A DNA stretch of 7,241 nucleotides from JAHJDO01 sp030671985 [NCBI: bacterium] (GTDB lineage: Bacteria; JAHJDO01), in the NCBI GenBank assembly GCA_030671985.1, contig DAOVHI010000070.1, positions 1 through 7,241 of the forward strand, read 5' to 3'. This document shows positions 588-7,241 of this stretch, one piece after another (the first letter of the stretch is position 1; each line of letters begins with the position of its first letter). Below the pieces are notes generated by a model, which was not told the origin of the DNA, did not search any database, and worked only from the letters and a program-made list of their open reading frames with translations. The position numbers and the translations under genes were made by a program.

Positions 588-2675
588 TTGTTTAGTTCTT
601 TAAAAGAAAAACAGAGAAACGATTTAATTGGATTGTTGCTTCTTGCCTTTAGTATCCTTATCTTTATTAGTCTGAAATCCTATGATTCTGCAGATATCGC
701 ATTTAATATATCGACCCCTAATAGGCCTGTACACAATTATATCGGTATAAGCGGGGCGTATATTGGGTTTGGACTTTTTCTTGCTCTGGGATTTGCGGCC
801 TATTTTGTACCAATTATAGGCTTTATTTCAAGTATTAATAGGTTCAGGCAGAAACCGCCGCAGAATATATATGTAAAAATACTTGGCATAGTTTTGCTTT
901 TATGTGGAGGAGCGGTTTTATTTGTTCTGATCAATATGCTCTCACTGAAGATTTTTCTTTTAGCAAACAGGTTTGAGGCAGGCGGTATATTAGGGCTTTT
1001 TCTGGCAGAACAGCTAAAAACGTATCTGGAGCAAACCGGAGCTTATATTGTAGCGGTAACAGTATTTATTTCCGGTTTTCTTTTATGTACAGAGTTTTCT
1101 CTCTCTGCTTTCAGTTCATATATTGCCGGCAAGTTCTCAAAAAAGGATTTAATTATTAATAGAAACATTACAAGAAAGATTAGAACCGCAGGGCTAAAAC
1201 AAGTTCAAACAAAAGCTGTTTCAGAAAAGCAGTCTGTCTCTAAAGAAACCGTTGCTTCGGTTCAGCCTGATGTATTCCAACTGCCGCCATTAACACTGCT
1301 GGATTTACCTTCGGAGTCTGATATGGCAAGTGATGACGCAAGCATGTTGGATTCAAACTCTGAAATACTGGAACAGACACTTCGTGATTTTGGCATAGAG
1401 GCAAAGGTTACTCAGATCAATCAAGGACCTGCTATCACAAGTTATGAATTACAGCCTGCGCCCGGAGTAAAGGTGCAAAATATTGTTGCGCTTGCAAATG
1501 ATATAGCGTTGAATCTTAAAGCACAAAGTGTTCGCATTGTGGCGCCAATTCCAGGAAAGGATGTTGTAGGAATTGAAATCCCAAATAGAAAAAGACAGCC
1601 CGTATATCTGAGAGAAGTGCTGGAGTCAAACGCTTTTAAGAATACTAAGTCAAAACTTGCGCTGGCGTTTGGAAAGGATATTCAGGGAGAATGTTTGGTT
1701 GCGGATATTGAGGATATGCCTCATATTTTAATTGCAGGAACTACCGGAGCAGGTAAGTCTGTATGTATTAGTAGTCTTATAATGAGTATGCTGTATAACT
1801 CATATCCGAGTGAAGTTCAATTTTTGATGATAGATCCAAAAATGGTGGAATTGTCGGCTTTTTCAGATATTCCTCAGCTCATAACTCCAATAGTAACTGA
1901 TGCAAAAAAAGCGGCCAATGCTCTGAAATGGATCGTGGGAGAGATGGAGGATAGATATCAAAAACTTGCAAAAGCGAATGTGCGCAATATTGCCGGATAT
2001 AACAAGATAGTTTCTGAGGGGAACATGCCGTATATTGTTGTAGTTATTGATGAATTGGCAGATTTAATGAGTGTTGCGCGTAGAGATGTTGAAGAATCAA
2101 TTACCAGATTGGCGCAACTTTCAAGAGCTGCCGGAATTCATATCATTCTTGCCACTCAAAGACCGTCGGTTGATGTGATAACAGGTGTTATTAAAGCTAA
2201 TTTCCCATGTAGACTCTCATTTCAGGTTTCTTCCAAGGTGGATTCCAGAACCGTTCTTGATATGAACGGAGCAGAGATTCTTCTTGGCAAGGGAGATATG
2301 TTATTTCTGCCCGCCGGCTCACCAAAGCCTGTGAGAGCGCAGGCATGTTTTGTATCTGATAAGGAAATATCAAGGACAGTCAATTTTCTCAAAAAACAGG
2401 CGGCTCCTTCGTACAGAAAGGAAATTCTTGAAGAACCTAAGGCTGAAGCGGCAAATGGAGAAGAATGGGAAAAAGATGATCTGTTTGAAGACGCTGTAAA
2501 AGTAGTTTTAGACACACATCAAGCATCTTCTTCAGTCCTGCAGCGCCGTCTCAGGATCGGATACGCAAGAGCTGCACGGCTTATTGATATGATGGAAGCC
2601 GAAGGTATTGTGGGCTCCCTCAAAGGAAGTAAAGGCCGAGAGATCCTCATAGATTCTTACGAAGCTGAAGAGTAA
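588..2675 (+). CDS. ftsK: FtsK/SpoIIIE family DNA translocase
   Basis: This is a membrane-anchored ATPase that pumps double-stranded DNA at the division septum and helps resolve the chromosome terminus. The 695 residues contain, in order: an N-terminal membrane domain of about four hydrophobic segments (roughly 13-29, 52-82, 95-126, 151-180); a short linker (182-232); the alpha domain (235-335); a RecA-like motor with Walker A GTTGAGKS at 384-391 and Walker B VVVIDE at 484-489, followed by ATQRPSVDVITG; and a C-terminal winged-helix gamma domain (630-690) with the conserved RIGYARAARLIDMM core that reads polar guide sequences (KOPS/SRS). The linker is short, as in SpoIIIE-like proteins rather than E. 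coli FtsK. The TTG at 588 is the only usable start in this frame after a stop at 528-530, and it puts the first membrane helix at the normal distance. Its ribosome site is weak (GGGA at 576-579), so coupling to dut is likely. The gene ends in tandem stops TAA TAG. Confidence 0.97.
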   Translation: MFSSLKEKQRNDLIGLLLLAFSILIFISLKSYDSADIAFNISTPNRPVHNYIGISGAYIGFGLFLALGFAAYFVPIIGFISSINRFRQKPPQNIYVKILGIVLLLCGGAVLFVLINMLSLKIFLLANRFEAGGILGLFLAEQLKTYLEQTGAYIVAVTVFISGFLLCTEFSLSAFSSYIAGKFSKKDLIINRNITRKIRTAGLKQVQTKAVSEKQSVSKETVASVQPDVFQLPPLTLLDLPSESDMASDDASMLDSNSEILEQTLRDFGIEAKVTQINQGPAITSYELQPAPGVKVQNIVALANDIALNLKAQSVRIVAPIPGKDVVGIEIPNRKRQPVYLREVLESNAFKNTKSKLALAFGKDIQGECLVADIEDMPHILIAGTTGAGKSVCISSLIMSMLYNSYPSEVQFLMIDPKMVELSAFSDIPQLITPIVTDAKKAANALKWIVGEMEDRYQKLAKANVRNIAGYNKIVSEGNMPYIVVVIDELADLMSVARRDVEESITRLAQLSRAAGIHIILATQRPSVDVITGVIKANFPCRLSFQVSSKVDSRTVLDMNGAEILLGKGDMLFLPAGSPKPVRAQACFVSDKEISRTVNFLKKQAAPSYRKEILEEPKAEAANGEEWEKDDLFEDAVKVVLDTHQASSSVLQRRLRIGYARAARLIDMMEAEGIVGSLKGSKGREILIDSYEAEE

Positions 2676-5600
2676 TAGTCTTCTTTTCCAGAGCATCTAT
2701 CCTGCGGCAGAAATCTACAAACTTTGGATAATCCGAGACGGAGATTTCCTGAGGGTGAAGTTCAAAGTGTTGTTTTACTTCCAGTGTGTTCTTATTTAAC
2801 GTAAATTCAACAAGATATTTACCGAATTTACTCTCTTCGGCGATATCTTGAGGCGTATCCTTAATGATAAAATTGTCAGGGATATTTATATCAAACTGCT
2901 GATCCATGTATAGAGGGGCAAATCCAAGGTTTATTACAATTGGGAATTTGCGCTGAATTTTCTGTATATATTTTTTACTGAGTTCCAGTTTAAAAGGAAT
3001 AGGGCTGAATGTAAACTCATCATCTCGTCCGGATACCTGCAGAAGAAAATCTGATATCGTGAATTTGTATTTTATGCAAAACGGATCTTCCTGGTTCTCT
3101 ATATTCGGAAATTCCGCCTTTTCCAAAACAGGTTCTCCAAAAGATTTTGCCAGTCCTTTTTCAATATATTTGTCCCACAGGTTTTTTTCTATGCCCTCAA
3201 GAAAAATAAGACGAAATAAACCGGATAAATTGCCCAGATAGGTTTCATCTGCCAAACAATCGGATTTTCCGTTAATATCTTTGTTAATATTTATAACCAG
3301 TTTTACTTTTGCTCCGTTAGCCGAAATATTTAAAGGAGGGGTTTTGCATATCTGATAATTGGTTGTATTAAAAACAAGCGCATCCGCATTTGTTAAACTC
3401 GAAGAAATTTCGCCGAATTTAAGATATTTGTTGCTTACGTCAAGCCAAATATTTTCTCCCTGAAGATTAAGTCTTACAAGTGGTGTTTGGAAAGCTCCAT
3501 AATAAGGCATGTCCATTTTTGCAAGTGTATTTGGCCTTACAAGAATATAAGCTGTATCAAGCCCTGCTATATCAAGCATAACTTTCAGCAAGATAGTTTT
3601 ATTCCCACTTTTTTTTGTCAAGGTAGATATTGCCGAATCAAATCCGGCGCTGTTATGTTTAATAGTCCTGTTTACATAGTAGTATATTGCTTCTGCCTTT
3701 TCCTTGGAGGTGTTACGATTCTTCGTGATTTCATAGGTTGTATCTCTAAGCAGTGACGTAACAATGGACGTTCCCATCATTAAACTTCTGTAGAGAGCAT
3801 CCACCTTATCTATTTTCATAGAGTCTGTTATAGTAACATTAGGCAATATATCTTCTTTTGGAGGCATCATAGCCTCTTTTGTAACGCTCGGAACATCATG
3901 GCACCCAAATTGAACAAGTTTTCTGTTGCCTTCCAAATTCCTCTCTTCTCTTACTATGTTATCTCCTAAATTTTTAGATATATACGAGACCTTAATATCT
4001 GACGGGAATATCACTGTATAACGGGACCAGAGGAGAGCTTCATTAAATGTCTGAAAATAAAAAGTCGGCAGTCTAAAATGACCTTTGGCTATGTTGTATT
4101 TTTTATGTTCAACAGTATATTTATATTCTATCACTGCACCCTTTTCTAATCCATGAACAGAGTAGACGTGTTTGCCTTTTATCTTTACCGGTTCTAATAT
4201 TGTCCCGTCTTTAAGAAATACTCTTAATTCCTCAAGCTTGCCGGGAATATAAATTTCACCATATTTTTCTATTCCTATTTCGCTAAAAATTTTAACTATC
4301 CTGTGTGTCGTCTCTCTATAACTGCCGTCTGCATTAAGAACGACAATATTCCCGTTATATAAAGCGGCAGTGAAGGCGTTTGGAAGTTCGCTTAGGTCTT
4401 TATTTTTTTCAATTAGTTTTACTGTGTTGAATTTCTTTTGAATATATGGTGCTGCTGTACGTGCTTTTATTTCAGTTAACATATTTCTAAGTTCAAAGTC
4501 GCGCGGAGCAAGTTTTAGAGCGTCTCTCCATGCTTTTATTGTGCCGTTTGTCTTATTCTCAGAATAGAAAAGATTTCCCAATGTTTTATGGCACACACTG
4601 TATGTTGGGACGATATCCAGAATATCTCTATACTGTTTATATGCGCTTTTATAGTCTCCCAATTTAGAATATAATCTGCCCAATTTCATGCGTAAATCAA
4701 TTCTCAGCGGATTAGCTTTTATACGAGCATCGTACTGTGCCGCAGCCTGATCATACTTACTTTCTTTTAGCAAGAGGGAAATAGGTATGCGCCCGCTTTT
4801 CTTGTAAAACTTATTAGCTTTATCAAACCTGTTTTTGCCGGCATATAATTCTGCTTTGAGTGCTAAGGCGTCTTTTAGCTCAGGATTGATTTTTAAAGCC
4901 GAATCAATGGATTTTTCGGCTTCTAAATCCCATCCTTTCTTCTTGTAAACTCTTCCAATATCAACATAGCCGACAGCAAACTCAGGATTTATTTTTATTG
5001 TGTGTTTAAATTTTTCTATCGCTTTTTCGTATAACTTATTTCTCTCAAAATATGCGCCCAGTGCTTGCAGAGCAGGTACGTGCCGGTCGTCATACTCAAT
5101 AACTTTATTGTAAAAGTTCTTTGCCTTGTTTTCTCTTTCTATTTTTGGAAGAAACCTAGCTTGCTCGTACATCCAGCCTATTGCGTATAAAAATCTGGAG
5201 AATTTAGGTTGAAGTTCAATTGCCCGCTTTAAATATTTTATTCCGTCATCCTGCAATCCTTGGCAGTAAAGATGCATGCCGGTATAGTAATAGTTCAGAG
5301 CTTTATTATCTAAACATTCAATGTTATTGTCATTGCGAACGGAGGAAAGCAATCCGGTTGTGGATTGCCGCGGCGTTTTGAACGCTTTCGAAATTTCTTG
5401 CAATGACGAGGATGATAACTTATCTATAAACTTCAGGTTTGCGCAAGTTCTTTTCTTCTTGTCGGTTACCCTTAACTTAAATGTCCAGTTACTTAATTCT
5501 GGCTCACAAACAGATTTGATAAGCAAAGAATTCCATCCTTCATCCAGAGAAGCATGGAATGAATTTGTTAAAGGATAGAAGTTTACATATTGATCGCACA

Positions 5601-6303
5601 CGGAGACGGATTGATGGTTTACCCATGCTTTCCACGACTGCGGTGTTTGAAGCTCAAAAATCACAGTCTGTTTAAAAGGAGAATGTATAAATGTCTGAGC
5701 ATAAGCGCATCCGACATTCGGCTTAATTATCTGTTTGAAATCGACTAAGCCATTTCTGAAGATGTTTTCAAAACGTCTCCAGCGAATCTCTCCGCTGTAT
5801 CCGCGATAGTTGGTGTCAAATTCAATCTCTTGTTCCGGAGGAAATTTTTCATAAAGACATGAGCGTCCAAATCTGCCAAACGGACCTATTACTGCCCATT
5901 CAGTTACATATCCAAAAGAATCGTAGATTTTTTTAGCCTTTTTTGGCTGATGAACGAGATTATAGAATTTTACCAGAACCTGTTTTGCAAGAAACTTGTT
6001 TTCACTGTTATTTATTCCGCTTTTTAGTATCTTTTCAAGAATCTTAATGGCTTTTCTATAAGTCGCAGACTTATTAAACCTCTCAGATGAGTTCAACATG
6101 TTTTGTAATATAACTGTGCTCCTTATAGAATCGGGATTTTCCTTTAATGTTTTTAGCCGGCTGTCCAGCATTTCGTCATACCTTCCTCCGGCTTCATACG
6201 CGAAGGCTATGCTCTCATATGAAGATATTACATTAGTTGCACTTGCCCAGGTCGTCAGGCATACAAATATTACTAAAATAAAAATTTTAAATAATTTCAT
6301 CAT
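2647..6303 (-). CDS. Secreted TPR protein with DUF3857 and degenerate transglutaminase-like domain
   Basis: This 1218-residue exported protein has no name I can assign. Visible parts, in order: a signal peptide with hydrophobic core 4-16 and an A-S-A cleavage site at 20-22; helical TPR-like segments (about 27-130); a beta-rich module opening with WAVIGPFGRFG at 136-146, probably jelly-roll or galactose-binding-like (about 135-290); a linker (295-334) that includes an in-frame palindromic repeat; about eight TPRs (335-605), e.g. the units ending KINPEF and KINPEL; a DUF3857-type beta domain (about 640-790); a transglutaminase-like domain (about 850-965); and a C-terminal beta region ending in the DYPKFVDFC motif. 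In the transglutaminase-like part, the position expected for the catalytic Cys is Ser899 (SGNKTILL), and that for His is Thr940 (FQTPL). Asp955 (WLDVS) remains. It is therefore probably non-catalytic and likely a periplasmic or outer-surface assembly/binding protein. ATG 6303 overlaps the upstream stop as ATGATG; the second ATG (6300) is equally possible. The 3' end overlaps ftsK. Confidence 0.87.
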   Translation of the reverse strand: MMKLFKIFILVIFVCLTTWASATNVISSYESIAFAYEAGGRYDEMLDSRLKTLKENPDSIRSTVILQNMLNSSERFNKSATYRKAIKILEKILKSGINNSENKFLAKQVLVKFYNLVHQPKKAKKIYDSFGYVTEWAVIGPFGRFGRSCLYEKFPPEQEIEFDTNYRGYSGEIRWRRFENIFRNGLVDFKQIIKPNVGCAYAQTFIHSPFKQTVIFELQTPQSWKAWVNHQSVSVCDQYVNFYPLTNSFHASLDEGWNSLLIKSVCEPELSNWTFKLRVTDKKKRTCANLKFIDKLSSSSLQEISKAFKTPRQSTTGLLSSVRNDNNIECLDNKALNYYYTGMHLYCQGLQDDGIKYLKRAIELQPKFSRFLYAIGWMYEQARFLPKIERENKAKNFYNKVIEYDDRHVPALQALGAYFERNKLYEKAIEKFKHTIKINPEFAVGYVDIGRVYKKKGWDLEAEKSIDSALKINPELKDALALKAELYAGKNRFDKANKFYKKSGRIPISLLLKESKYDQAAAQYDARIKANPLRIDLRMKLGRLYSKLGDYKSAYKQYRDILDIVPTYSVCHKTLGNLFYSENKTNGTIKAWRDALKLAPRDFELRNMLTEIKARTAAPYIQKKFNTVKLIEKNKDLSELPNAFTAALYNGNIVVLNADGSYRETTHRIVKIFSEIGIEKYGEIYIPGKLEELRVFLKDGTILEPVKIKGKHVYSVHGLEKGAVIEYKYTVEHKKYNIAKGHFRLPTFYFQTFNEALLWSRYTVIFPSDIKVSYISKNLGDNIVREERNLEGNRKLVQFGCHDVPSVTKEAMMPPKEDILPNVTITDSMKIDKVDALYRSLMMGTSIVTSLLRDTTYEITKNRNTSKEKAEAIYYYVNRTIKHNSAGFDSAISTLTKKSGNKTILLKVMLDIAGLDTAYILVRPNTLAKMDMPYYGAFQTPLVRLNLQGENIWLDVSNKYLKFGEISSSLTNADALVFNTTNYQICKTPPLNISANGAKVKLVININKDINGKSDCLADETYLGNLSGLFRLIFLEGIEKNLWDKYIEKGLAKSFGEPVLEKAEFPNIENQEDPFCIKYKFTISDFLLQVSGRDDEFTFSPIPFKLELSKKYIQKIQRKFPIVINLGFAPLYMDQQFDINIPDNFIIKDTPQDIAEESKFGKYLVEFTLNKNTLEVKQHFELHPQEISVSDYPKFVDFCRRIDALEKKTITLQLRKNL
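5329..5407. repeat. 79-bp palindromic repeat element inside a coding gene
   Basis: The terminal inverted repeats GTCATTGC (5329-5336) and GCAATGAC (5400-5407) are perfect over 8 bases. Inside are GCAATCC (5349-5355) and GGATTGC (5362-5368) around a 6-base loop, then GCGTT/AACGC (5373-5377 and 5381-5385) around TTG, and the palindrome TTTCGAAA (5386-5393). The outer and inner arms follow the pattern GTCATTGCGA...GGA...AAGCAATCC, which I recall as the ends of palindromic repeats scattered through many bacterial genomes. About 49% of its bases are G or C (39 of 79 by hand count), more than the flanks appear to have. It encodes residues 299-325 of the minus-strand TPR protein without breaking the frame. 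No clear target-site duplication is seen, and no second copy lies in this window. It is probably a non-autonomous element that was domesticated as linker sequence. Confidence 0.6.
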
Positions 6304-7241
6304 TCAACAGCAGGTTTCTTTTTAATTATTATCTCATTATTTTCGTTTTTATCTACATTTGTGCAAAATTTACGAAATTCCGGATACTCTTCAGGCGAAA
6401 TTCTGGAGACATCTAGCTGAAACTTTATTTTAATCATAATCTTATCGGCTAATTTTCTATACGCTATTGATAGAGATCCGAATTTGCTTTTCAGTTCAAC
6501 ACGTTGCGGCAGATGACTTGCCTCATAACCCTGCGGAAGCAGGAATTCAGTTGTCCTGTTCTCCATAGATGGATACGAAAGTAAGAGGTCGTATTTTCGT
6601 CTACTGCTTGAAGCATATCTTTGAGTAAGTTTATGCCTGAACATAACCGAATTAAATGAAAAACCTTCGGAAACAGGTTTTAAGAATTTTGGCACACTAA
6701 CGGCATAATTGTATTTTATAGGAGTATCCAGTCCTGATAAATCCGGAAAGTGGACATTTATTACCTGCGCGCCTTCAAATATGGTGTTTAATAGTTTTTC
6801 AAATTCCTCTTTCTGTTTTGAAGGAATTTGGAAGAAATATCTAATTGCGGGACAGAATGCTCCCTTAATTATTTCTGTTCCGCCAATATATGCACTGCCA
6901 TCGTTTTTTAACAATACTTTTTTATCTGAGACACGATTGTTATGAATGCTTGCGTTAATGGGCGTTGTAGATAATATTCCCTTTCTACGCTTCGGGTCTA
7001 CTACAAACACACAGACTTCCTGATCCATCCATGGTGTTTCACTGATACTGCTATATTCCGCAGTGCCGTCCAGCCAGAGCTCTTTTCCGTCCTTAAGCCG
7101 AACGTGACATATTGCGTGATTAAACAGCCCAAGATAGGGTTGGGAGCAGTCAAACATGCCTCGGGATCTTGGTCTTGGAAGCACAATTTCCGAATGGATC
7201 CCAGCTTCTTTAAGCATTGGCATAACTAGCAGCGCTTTATC
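6300..7241 (-). CDS. Transglutaminase-like / DUF3857-type protein, C-terminal part (partial)
   Basis: The gene enters from the right edge; 313 residues are visible and the true start is outside. The frame is open to the last base and begins D-K-A-L-L-V-M-P-M-L-K-E-A-G-I. This matches the 'C-x-D-K-A-x-L-x-x-x-M-L-x-x-A-G-I' segment of bacterial transglutaminase-like domains that follow DUF3857, so the ATG at 7223 is internal. The catalytic Cys would be encoded just beyond the window. The His is present in FNHAI (fragment residue 42) and the Asp in LWLDGT (residue 58), so this domain looks catalytically competent. A beta-rich C-terminal region follows, ending in an EEYPEFRKFC motif shared with the downstream 1218-residue protein. 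Its stop overlaps that gene's start by four bases (ATGA), so the two are translationally coupled. A periplasmic location is likely by analogy but the signal peptide is not visible. Substrate unknown. Confidence 0.83.
   Translation of the reverse strand, partial: DKALLVMPMLKEAGIHSEIVLPRPRSRGMFDCSQPYLGLFNHAICHVRLKDGKELWLDGTAEYSSISETPWMDQEVCVFVVDPKRRKGILSTTPINASIHNNRVSDKKVLLKNDGSAYIGGTEIIKGAFCPAIRYFFQIPSKQKEEFEKLLNTIFEGAQVINVHFPDLSGLDTPIKYNYAVSVPKFLKPVSEGFSFNSVMFRHKLTQRYASSSRRKYDLLLSYPSMENRTTEFLLPQGYEASHLPQRVELKSKFGSLSIAYRKLADKIMIKIKFQLDVSRISPEEYPEFRKFCTNVDKNENNEIIIKKKPAVE

What the first reader, a model, noticed from the sequence alone, without database searches (positions are those of the whole stretch)
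5329..5407. Dispersed-type palindromic repeat captured in frame within a TPR protein gene
A 79-bp segment with perfect 8-bp terminal inverted repeats (GTCATTGC/GCAATGAC), an inner GCAATCC/GGATTGC hairpin, a GCGTT/AACGC hairpin and a TTTCGAAA palindrome sits in the middle of an otherwise intact 1218-codon gene. It translates on the minus strand as residues 299-325, a Ser/Thr/Lys-rich linker between the jelly-roll-like module and the TPR array, where an insertion would be tolerated. Repeats with GTCATTGCGA...AAGCAATC ends are common between genes in many bacteria. Coding insertion recalls the palindromic elements reported inside Rickettsia and Wolbachia proteins. A repeat that stays open in its host frame would be a source of new protein sequence. 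The repeat structure is seen directly; mobility and capture are inference.
Basis: partly seen in the sequence, partly recalled or inferred. Interest (0 to 1): 0.65.

Follow-up and report, generated by a model that had tools for sequence, protein, structure and literature searches.

The report
REP palindrome captured in a protein
A common kind of short bacterial DNA repeat sits in the middle of a protein gene without breaking it, at the same place in three related species, and now encodes a stretch linking two parts of the protein; this kind of event is known from Rickettsia and other bacteria, and here is a new example in an unnamed lineage.

Summary
Window 5329-5407 holds two units of one dispersed palindromic repeat, tags outward, read in frame inside a 1218-codon TPR/DUF3857 gene. 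A covariance model built from 18 units outside this gene lists 108 units (E<=0.05) in the five genomes of the genus; most lie between genes. Orthologues in two sister species carry diverged copies at the same place. Two others carry a non-palindromic linker of similar length (33 against 36-40 residues), as does a paralogue family, so the repeat seems to have replaced a linker, not simply lengthened it. Other genes of the genus hold in-frame copies: dephospho-CoA kinase, a DNA methylase (empty site in three homologues aligned), a propeller protein and two RHS proteins. The repeat resembles CGTC-tagged REPs, whose intragenic copies in Rickettsia, including same-site retention in orthologues, are published. 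So this is a new member of a known kind. Two leads are less ordinary: a Y1 transposase gene whose two ends lie inside units of this family, and a sister copy with a perfect 13-bp hairpin, the longest of 110 units.

The parts
5329..5407 (.). REP-type inverted dimer, 79 bp, tags outermost
   Evidence: 10 of 11 neighbouring unit pairs closer than 60 nt (window pair included) have this orientation, spacer 1-7 nt
5329..5355 (+). Unit A, short form, TGTC tag
   Evidence: model R1, 15.7 bits, E 0.04 in 28 kb
5356..5361 (.). 6-nt spacer between the two units
5362..5407 (-). Unit B, long form, CGTC tag, with a decayed inner hairpin of the TCCCGAA/TTCGGGA type
   Evidence: model R1, 13.6 bits, E 0.13 in 28 kb; ungapped alignment to dispersed units
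5329..5336 (+). Left arm of the 8-bp terminal inverted repeat
5400..5407 (-). Right arm of the 8-bp terminal inverted repeat
5329..5409 (-). Codons 299-325 of the host protein, read through the dimer without a stop
2647..6303 (-). Host gene: 1218-aa protein with TPR repeats, DUF3857 and a DUF3858 match below its cut-off

Best explanation
The 79 bp are a copy of a CGTC-like REP family, two units in inverse orientation, that entered the linker between the N-terminal region and the TPR array in an ancestor of at least three species of this genus. It stayed open in the host frame and has since been kept and has diverged as ordinary linker sequence. Shown: family membership, in-frame reading, the same place in three species, and empty sites for other in-frame copies. 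Inferred: that the unit moved as a single-stranded hairpin handled by an IS200/IS605-type (Y1, HUH) transposase acting in trans; that part of the older linker was lost when or after it arrived; and that the repeat has no job in the protein beyond being a tolerated spacer.
For: Dispersed family: 10 exact tags against 0 in the control; 108 listed units at E<=0.05 in 5 genomes, the 18 training units among them. Same place in orthologues: G003 (E 1.8e-7) and G002 (E 4.5e-4), none in G001 and G004. All three copies have the long unit first on the coding strand and leave the flanks in frame. In-frame copies elsewhere: 9 well-supported sites of 97 (window site included), in TPR (3 species), CoaE (2), RHS (2), methylase (1), propeller (1). 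Empty sites: the methylase has 12 extra residues that the three homologues I aligned (of 11 other loci returned) lack; CoaE is short in G002 and in one of two G004 copies. Y1 transposases in 5 of 5 genomes. Published precedent: PMC3733652 and PMC3767692.
Against: The orthologues without the repeat have a linker of nearly equal length, so there is no clean empty site for this gene. The trees cannot say whether the repeat was gained once or was lost in G001/G004: the FtsK tree leaves the order inside the genus open (its G001 row is only 331 aa), and the TPR tree is unrooted. The window copy alone does not pass E<=1 genome-wide. No target-site duplication is seen (by eye). Only 1 of 16 transposase genes carries units at both ends.
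Confidence: 0.85

Rival explanations
1. Hot spot: the three species received the repeat at this place independently, as a preferred insertion site.
For: The inner parts differ strongly between the three copies. With the TPR tree drawn at its midpoint G000 lies outside the other four, so G001/G004 without the repeat would nest among carriers. PMC3767692 keeps hot spots open for RPE-4/6/7.
Against: Break points agree to within a few bases in all three, and all three have the long-form unit first on the coding strand.
Confidence: 0.15
2. The linker of G001 and G004 is itself a fully decayed repeat, so the insertion is older than the genus and nothing was replaced.
For: Nearly equal length. Rickettsia orthologues without a typical RPE still have an insertion there (PMC3767692).
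Against: No model match in L020 or L021. A paralogue family in the same genus has a linker of 32-33 residues here in three species (counted by eye).
Confidence: 0.2
3. The palindrome is kept because its RNA or DNA hairpin has a function inside the gene, such as pausing, mRNA processing or gyrase binding.
For: The G002 copy has a perfect 13-bp hairpin, the longest of 110 units. The G000 inner stem shows two C-G to T-A changes on both sides (by eye). Pairing across the dispersed family is above shuffles (98.5 against 97.0 percent, on an alignment fitted to the structure).
Against: Outer stem decayed in G002, inner stem partly broken in G000; repeat absent in two orthologues; no Rfam match at E<=5. 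Template switching between arms would give the same pattern without selection (PMC8604942, abstract).
Confidence: 0.06
4. Chance palindrome produced by codon usage; not a repeat.
For: The window copy alone scores weakly.
Against: Ten exact tags against none in the control; same-place copies with much better scores; fold better than shuffles.
Confidence: 0.02

Closest known systems
CGTC-tagged REPs (Di Nocera et al. 2013, PMC3733652)
   Same: CGTC/TGTC tag, stem beginning with AT, dispersed, mostly intergenic, inverted dimers, intragenic dimers coding 20-30 residues.
   Different: Constant stem of 5 bp, not 8-9, with a variable inner part; usual tail TCTC or TCTT, not CCA. That paper found no transposase gene flanked by CGTC units; here one Y1 gene has units at both ends.
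Rickettsia palindromic elements RPE-4, RPE-6, RPE-7 and Wolbachia WPE (PMC3767692; PMC2229807)
   Same: In frame in conserved proteins, at the same site in orthologues, ATGAC at the ends, orthologues with an insertion but no recognisable repeat.
   Different: Another set of genomes (unnamed, so lineage not tested); the dimer is 79 bp; the repeat-free orthologues here may keep an older linker.
GTAG REPs with RAYT transposases (REPtrons; PMC3733652, PMC6006769)
   Same: Short palindromes likely mobilised in trans by Y1 transposases.
   Different: Tag is YGTC, not GTAG; association with a transposase gene is rare here.

Membership tests
REP (repetitive extragenic palindrome), general | Short palindromic unit in many copies | tested here: met
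   108 listed units at E<=0.05 in 5 genomes; only 150 candidates per genome were scored, so these are lower bounds
REP (repetitive extragenic palindrome), general | Mostly between genes | tested here: met
   88 of 110 units have no ORF of 120 aa or more over them; 14 (12 of 97 sites) lie well inside one and 8 overlap an ORF end or hold its stop (counted). Coding density of the genomes was not measured.
REP (repetitive extragenic palindrome), general | Inverted dimers | tested here: met
   10 of 11 neighbour pairs closer than 60 nt are +/- with tags outward, spacer 1-7 nt; the window pair is one of the ten
CGTC-tagged REP superfamily | CGTC tag, often changed to TGTC | tested here: met
   Base before GTC is T in 66 and C in 26 of 110 units; the window dimer has one TGTC and one CGTC
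CGTC-tagged REP superfamily | Stem of 8-9 bp, loop of 4-5 | tested here: not met
   Constant stem is ATTGC/GCAAT, 5 bp, with a variable inner part
CGTC-tagged REP superfamily | 3-nt unpaired tail, mostly CCA | tested here: not met
   94 of 110 units end GCAATCTC or GCAATCTT (79 and 15, from the ends listed); the two window units end GCAATCC
Rickettsia palindromic elements | In-frame retention at the same site in orthologues | tested here: met
   TPR gene in 3 of 5 genomes; CoaE in 2 genomes plus one decayed copy
Rickettsia palindromic elements | Found in Rickettsia or Wolbachia | not testable with these tools
MITE with cut-and-paste transposase | Target-site duplication | tested here: not met
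   Flanks TTATT and GAGGAT show no duplication (by eye, window copy only)
REP with a dedicated Y1 transposase | Units flank the transposase gene | tested here: inconclusive
   Units at both ends in 1 of 16 genus loci, end motif at the 3' end in 3 of 16; model matches in 1 of 40 transposase loci; exact 9-mer near none of the other 29 of 30 loci except once inside a gene

The most novel reading that the evidence does not exclude
This genus holds a REP system of the CGTC-like type with its own Y1 transposase (G004:C105, units at both gene ends in the same orientation), something the 2013 survey reported missing for CGTC repeats. Its intragenic copies keep making new protein sequence, because template switching between hairpin arms rewrites both arms together, as the 13-bp hairpin in the G002 linker suggests.
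Probability: 0.15. Interest if true: 0.65.

Novelty: new member of a known kind. Interest (0 to 1): 0.38.

Why it matters
It extends in-frame repeat capture, best known from Rickettsia, to another genus with several affected genes and sister species at workable distances. That makes it a usable case for asking how a linker is replaced by repeat DNA and how coding hairpins evolve. The transposase gene with this repeat at both ends is a concrete candidate for the enzyme that CGTC repeats were said to lack (PMC3733652; one search found no later paper about it among the 10 listed titles and abstract beginnings).

Tried and rejected
A structure prediction of residues 181-420 from the single sequence gave mean pLDDT 41 and says nothing. 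A literature search for the tag as letters gave 31 papers; 20 were listed, their titles and abstract beginnings do not concern this repeat, and none was opened. The propeller protein of G002 has only short matches in G001 and none in the other three genomes, so its empty site could not be tested. I looked for a general link between Y1 transposases and this repeat. In 30 loci (of 119 genomes with a match among 385) the exact 9-mer tag occurs at the G004:C105 gene and once inside another transposase gene, L220, the backward control nowhere; the model matches only in the G004:C105 locus of 40, and not at G003:C87, whose 3' end holds only the end motif. The chance value for the 13-bp hairpin, 0.0012, was computed after seeing it and would be about 0.1 after allowing for 110 units; stems were counted with loops of 2-8 nt only.

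Counts set aside: of 12 sites with a unit well inside an ORF, three were not called well supported: G003:C52 (a start codon lies just after the unit, and no Pfam match), G004:C68 (no Pfam match) and G004:C44 (123-aa ORF, not scanned). The 19 CoaE loci from outside the genus were aligned and looked at by eye only.

Papers: PMC3733652 outline, passages, sections 15 and 16, and part 1 of 2 of section 17; PMC3767692 passages and section 12; PMC2229807 passages and section 9; PMC6006769 abstract beginning and passages, from which the single-strand, end-hairpin mechanism of IS200/IS605 is taken; PMC8604942 outline and abstract. All others in the search listings were seen as listings only.

Full report
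What is there. The window is a whole contig (G000:C6) of a 1.25-Mb draft genome in 152 contigs. The gene at 2647-6303 minus codes for a 1218-residue protein with TPR repeats and DUF3857, and a DUF3858 match below its cut-off. Ahead of the TPR array, residues 299-325 are coded by a 79-bp palindromic stretch, 5329-5407. The stretch folds better than dinucleotide shuffles on both strands. The jelly-roll reading of the N-terminal part was not tested: Pfam shows nothing there and the structure prediction failed.

A dispersed family. GTCATTGCGA occurs 10 times in this genome, the same pattern read backwards not once. A two-ended pattern finds 12 places in the five genomes held of the genus. From 18 units outside the TPR gene I built a covariance model, R1. 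In the five genomes it lists 108 units at E<=0.05, the 18 training units among them: G000 10, G001 30, G002 18, G003 32, G004 18; only 150 candidates per genome were scored, so these are lower bounds. Of 110 units (those plus the two in the window), 94 begin GTCATTGCGA, with T before it in 66 and C in 26 of all 110; of 11 neighbour pairs closer than 60 nt, 10 are inverted with the tags outward and 1-7 nt between them. The window element is one of these ten: unit A 5329-5355 plus and unit B 5362-5407 minus, 6 nt apart. Unit B is the long form with an inner hairpin, 33 of 47 letters identical without a gap to a dispersed unit (counted by eye). The window scores are weak (E 0.04 and 0.13 in 28 kb), and the copy is missing from the genome-wide list at E<=1, so it is a diverged copy. 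In 370 genomes across the domain, 93 hold the two-ended pattern, the five of this genus included, some with over 200 matches; the backward control shows one match in each of two genomes as I read the rows.

The same place in sister species. Orthologues of 72-77 percent identity exist in all four congeners; those of G004 and G001 run off contig ends. In G003 and G002 the linker is also coded by the repeat, at the same place (R1 E 1.8e-7 and 4.5e-4; alignment). The G003 copy has outer arms TCATTGCGAGG/CCTCGCAATGA. In G002 the outer arms have decayed, but the inner hairpin is a perfect 13-bp stem, the longest of 110 units; the next is 9. In G004 and G001 there is no match; the linker there is 33 residues, against 36, 40 and 38 in G000, G003 and G002. 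A paralogue family has a linker of 32-33 residues here in G002, G003 and G004 (counted by eye). I take the repeat-free form as the older one; the repeat then replaced most of it, or entered with a deletion. That is inference. The trees do not settle the history: the TPR tree groups G002 with G003 and G001 with G004 at high support but is unrooted, and the FtsK tree supports the genus (100/98) and, less firmly, G002 with G003 (81/92), and leaves the rest open; its G001 row is only 331 residues.

Other captured copies. Of the 110 units, 88 have no open frame of 120 residues or more over them, 14 (12 of 97 sites) lie well inside one, and 8 overlap an end or hold the stop. Nine of the 12 sites are well supported: the TPR gene in three species, dephospho-CoA kinase in G000 and G003 at the same place, RHS proteins in G001 and G004, a DNA methylase in G002, and a dimer in a propeller protein of G002. 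The methylase has 12 extra residues that the three homologues I aligned lack, all from other families, one of them 70 percent identical over residues 1-296; the other loci returned were not aligned. CoaE has a third, decayed copy in a second G004 gene, and short forms in G002 and in the first G004 gene; none was found in G001. Copies read from the minus side of the unit mostly end in RND (CGC AAT GAC). Units are more open than random stretches of the same loci: 4.1 of 6 frames against 3.4.

How it may move. Genes with the Y1 transposase domain are present in 5 of 5 genomes. In G004:C105 the reading frame of one begins and ends inside units of this family, in the same orientation. In two others, G000:C47 and G003:C87, the stop codon lies in the end motif TCGCAATGA, though the model does not match at G003:C87. 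In total 3 of 16 genus loci inspected have the motif at a gene end, and 1 of 16 has units at both. In 30 loci of the nearest related transposases, 28 of them from outside the genus, no other gene has the exact tag at its ends. This is a lead, not a proof.

Comparison with what is known. The 2013 survey of GTAG and CGTC REPs (PMC3733652; passages, sections 15-16 and part 1 of 17 read) describes CGTC repeats in five phyla, intragenic dimers or groups coding 20-30 residues, and the identity of intragenic R. conorii repeats with RPE-4 and RPE-6; it reports no transposase flanked by CGTC units. The R. japonica paper (PMC3767692, section 12 read) reports RPE-4/6/7 at the same sites in orthologues, an ATGAC motif, and orthologues with an insertion but no recognisable repeat. 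A review states that one Rickettsia enzyme with such an insert, guanylate kinase, is made and active (PMC2229807). The present family has the tag and habits of CGTC REPs but a shorter constant stem and another tail, so I call it CGTC-like and do not place it in one of the four published families.

Verdict. The finding is real and its reading is right in the main; the kind of event is known. What it adds is another genus, several captured copies with sister-species comparisons, one likely case of linker replacement rather than plain insertion, and a candidate transposase.

Noticed in passing
L206 1501-2184 (G004:C105:11463-12146): Y1 transposase gene whose 228-codon frame begins and ends inside repeat units of this family, both in the same orientation; candidate dedicated transposase of a CGTC-like REP.
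   Followed up: partly
L007 (G000:C47, 952-961) and L068 (G003:C87, locus 1813-1822): Two further Y1 transposase genes whose stop codon lies in the repeat's end motif TCGCAATGA.
   Followed up: partly
L166, L167, L189 (CoaE genes): Dephospho-CoA kinase with a 10-14-residue repeat-coded stretch at one place in G000 and G003, decayed in a second G004 copy, absent in G002 and the other G004 copy.
   Followed up: yes
L122 995-2980 (G002:C115): Type III DNA methylase with a 12-residue repeat-coded insert that three aligned homologues lack.
   Followed up: yes
L106 and L156 (RHS proteins): A single unit reads as VIA(N/S)GSEAIS just before a YsYD/YtYD motif of an RHS repeat, so it may fit the period of that repeat.
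   Followed up: no
G004 contigs C16, C26, C37, C48, C52, C55, C72, C73 (positions about 61-91): The model's inner palindrome part (positions 11-33) matches 61-91 bases from the start of eight G004 contigs, as if another, higher-copy element breaks the assembly there.
   Followed up: no
L192, L194 (FtsK of G001 and G002): One in-frame stop each (TAG, TAA) is counted in the FtsK matches; may be assembly error or true breaks.
   Followed up: no
window 6300-7241 minus: A second protein frame of the same family lies directly upstream of the host gene and runs off the contig (25 percent identity to the host protein's C-terminal part).
   Followed up: no
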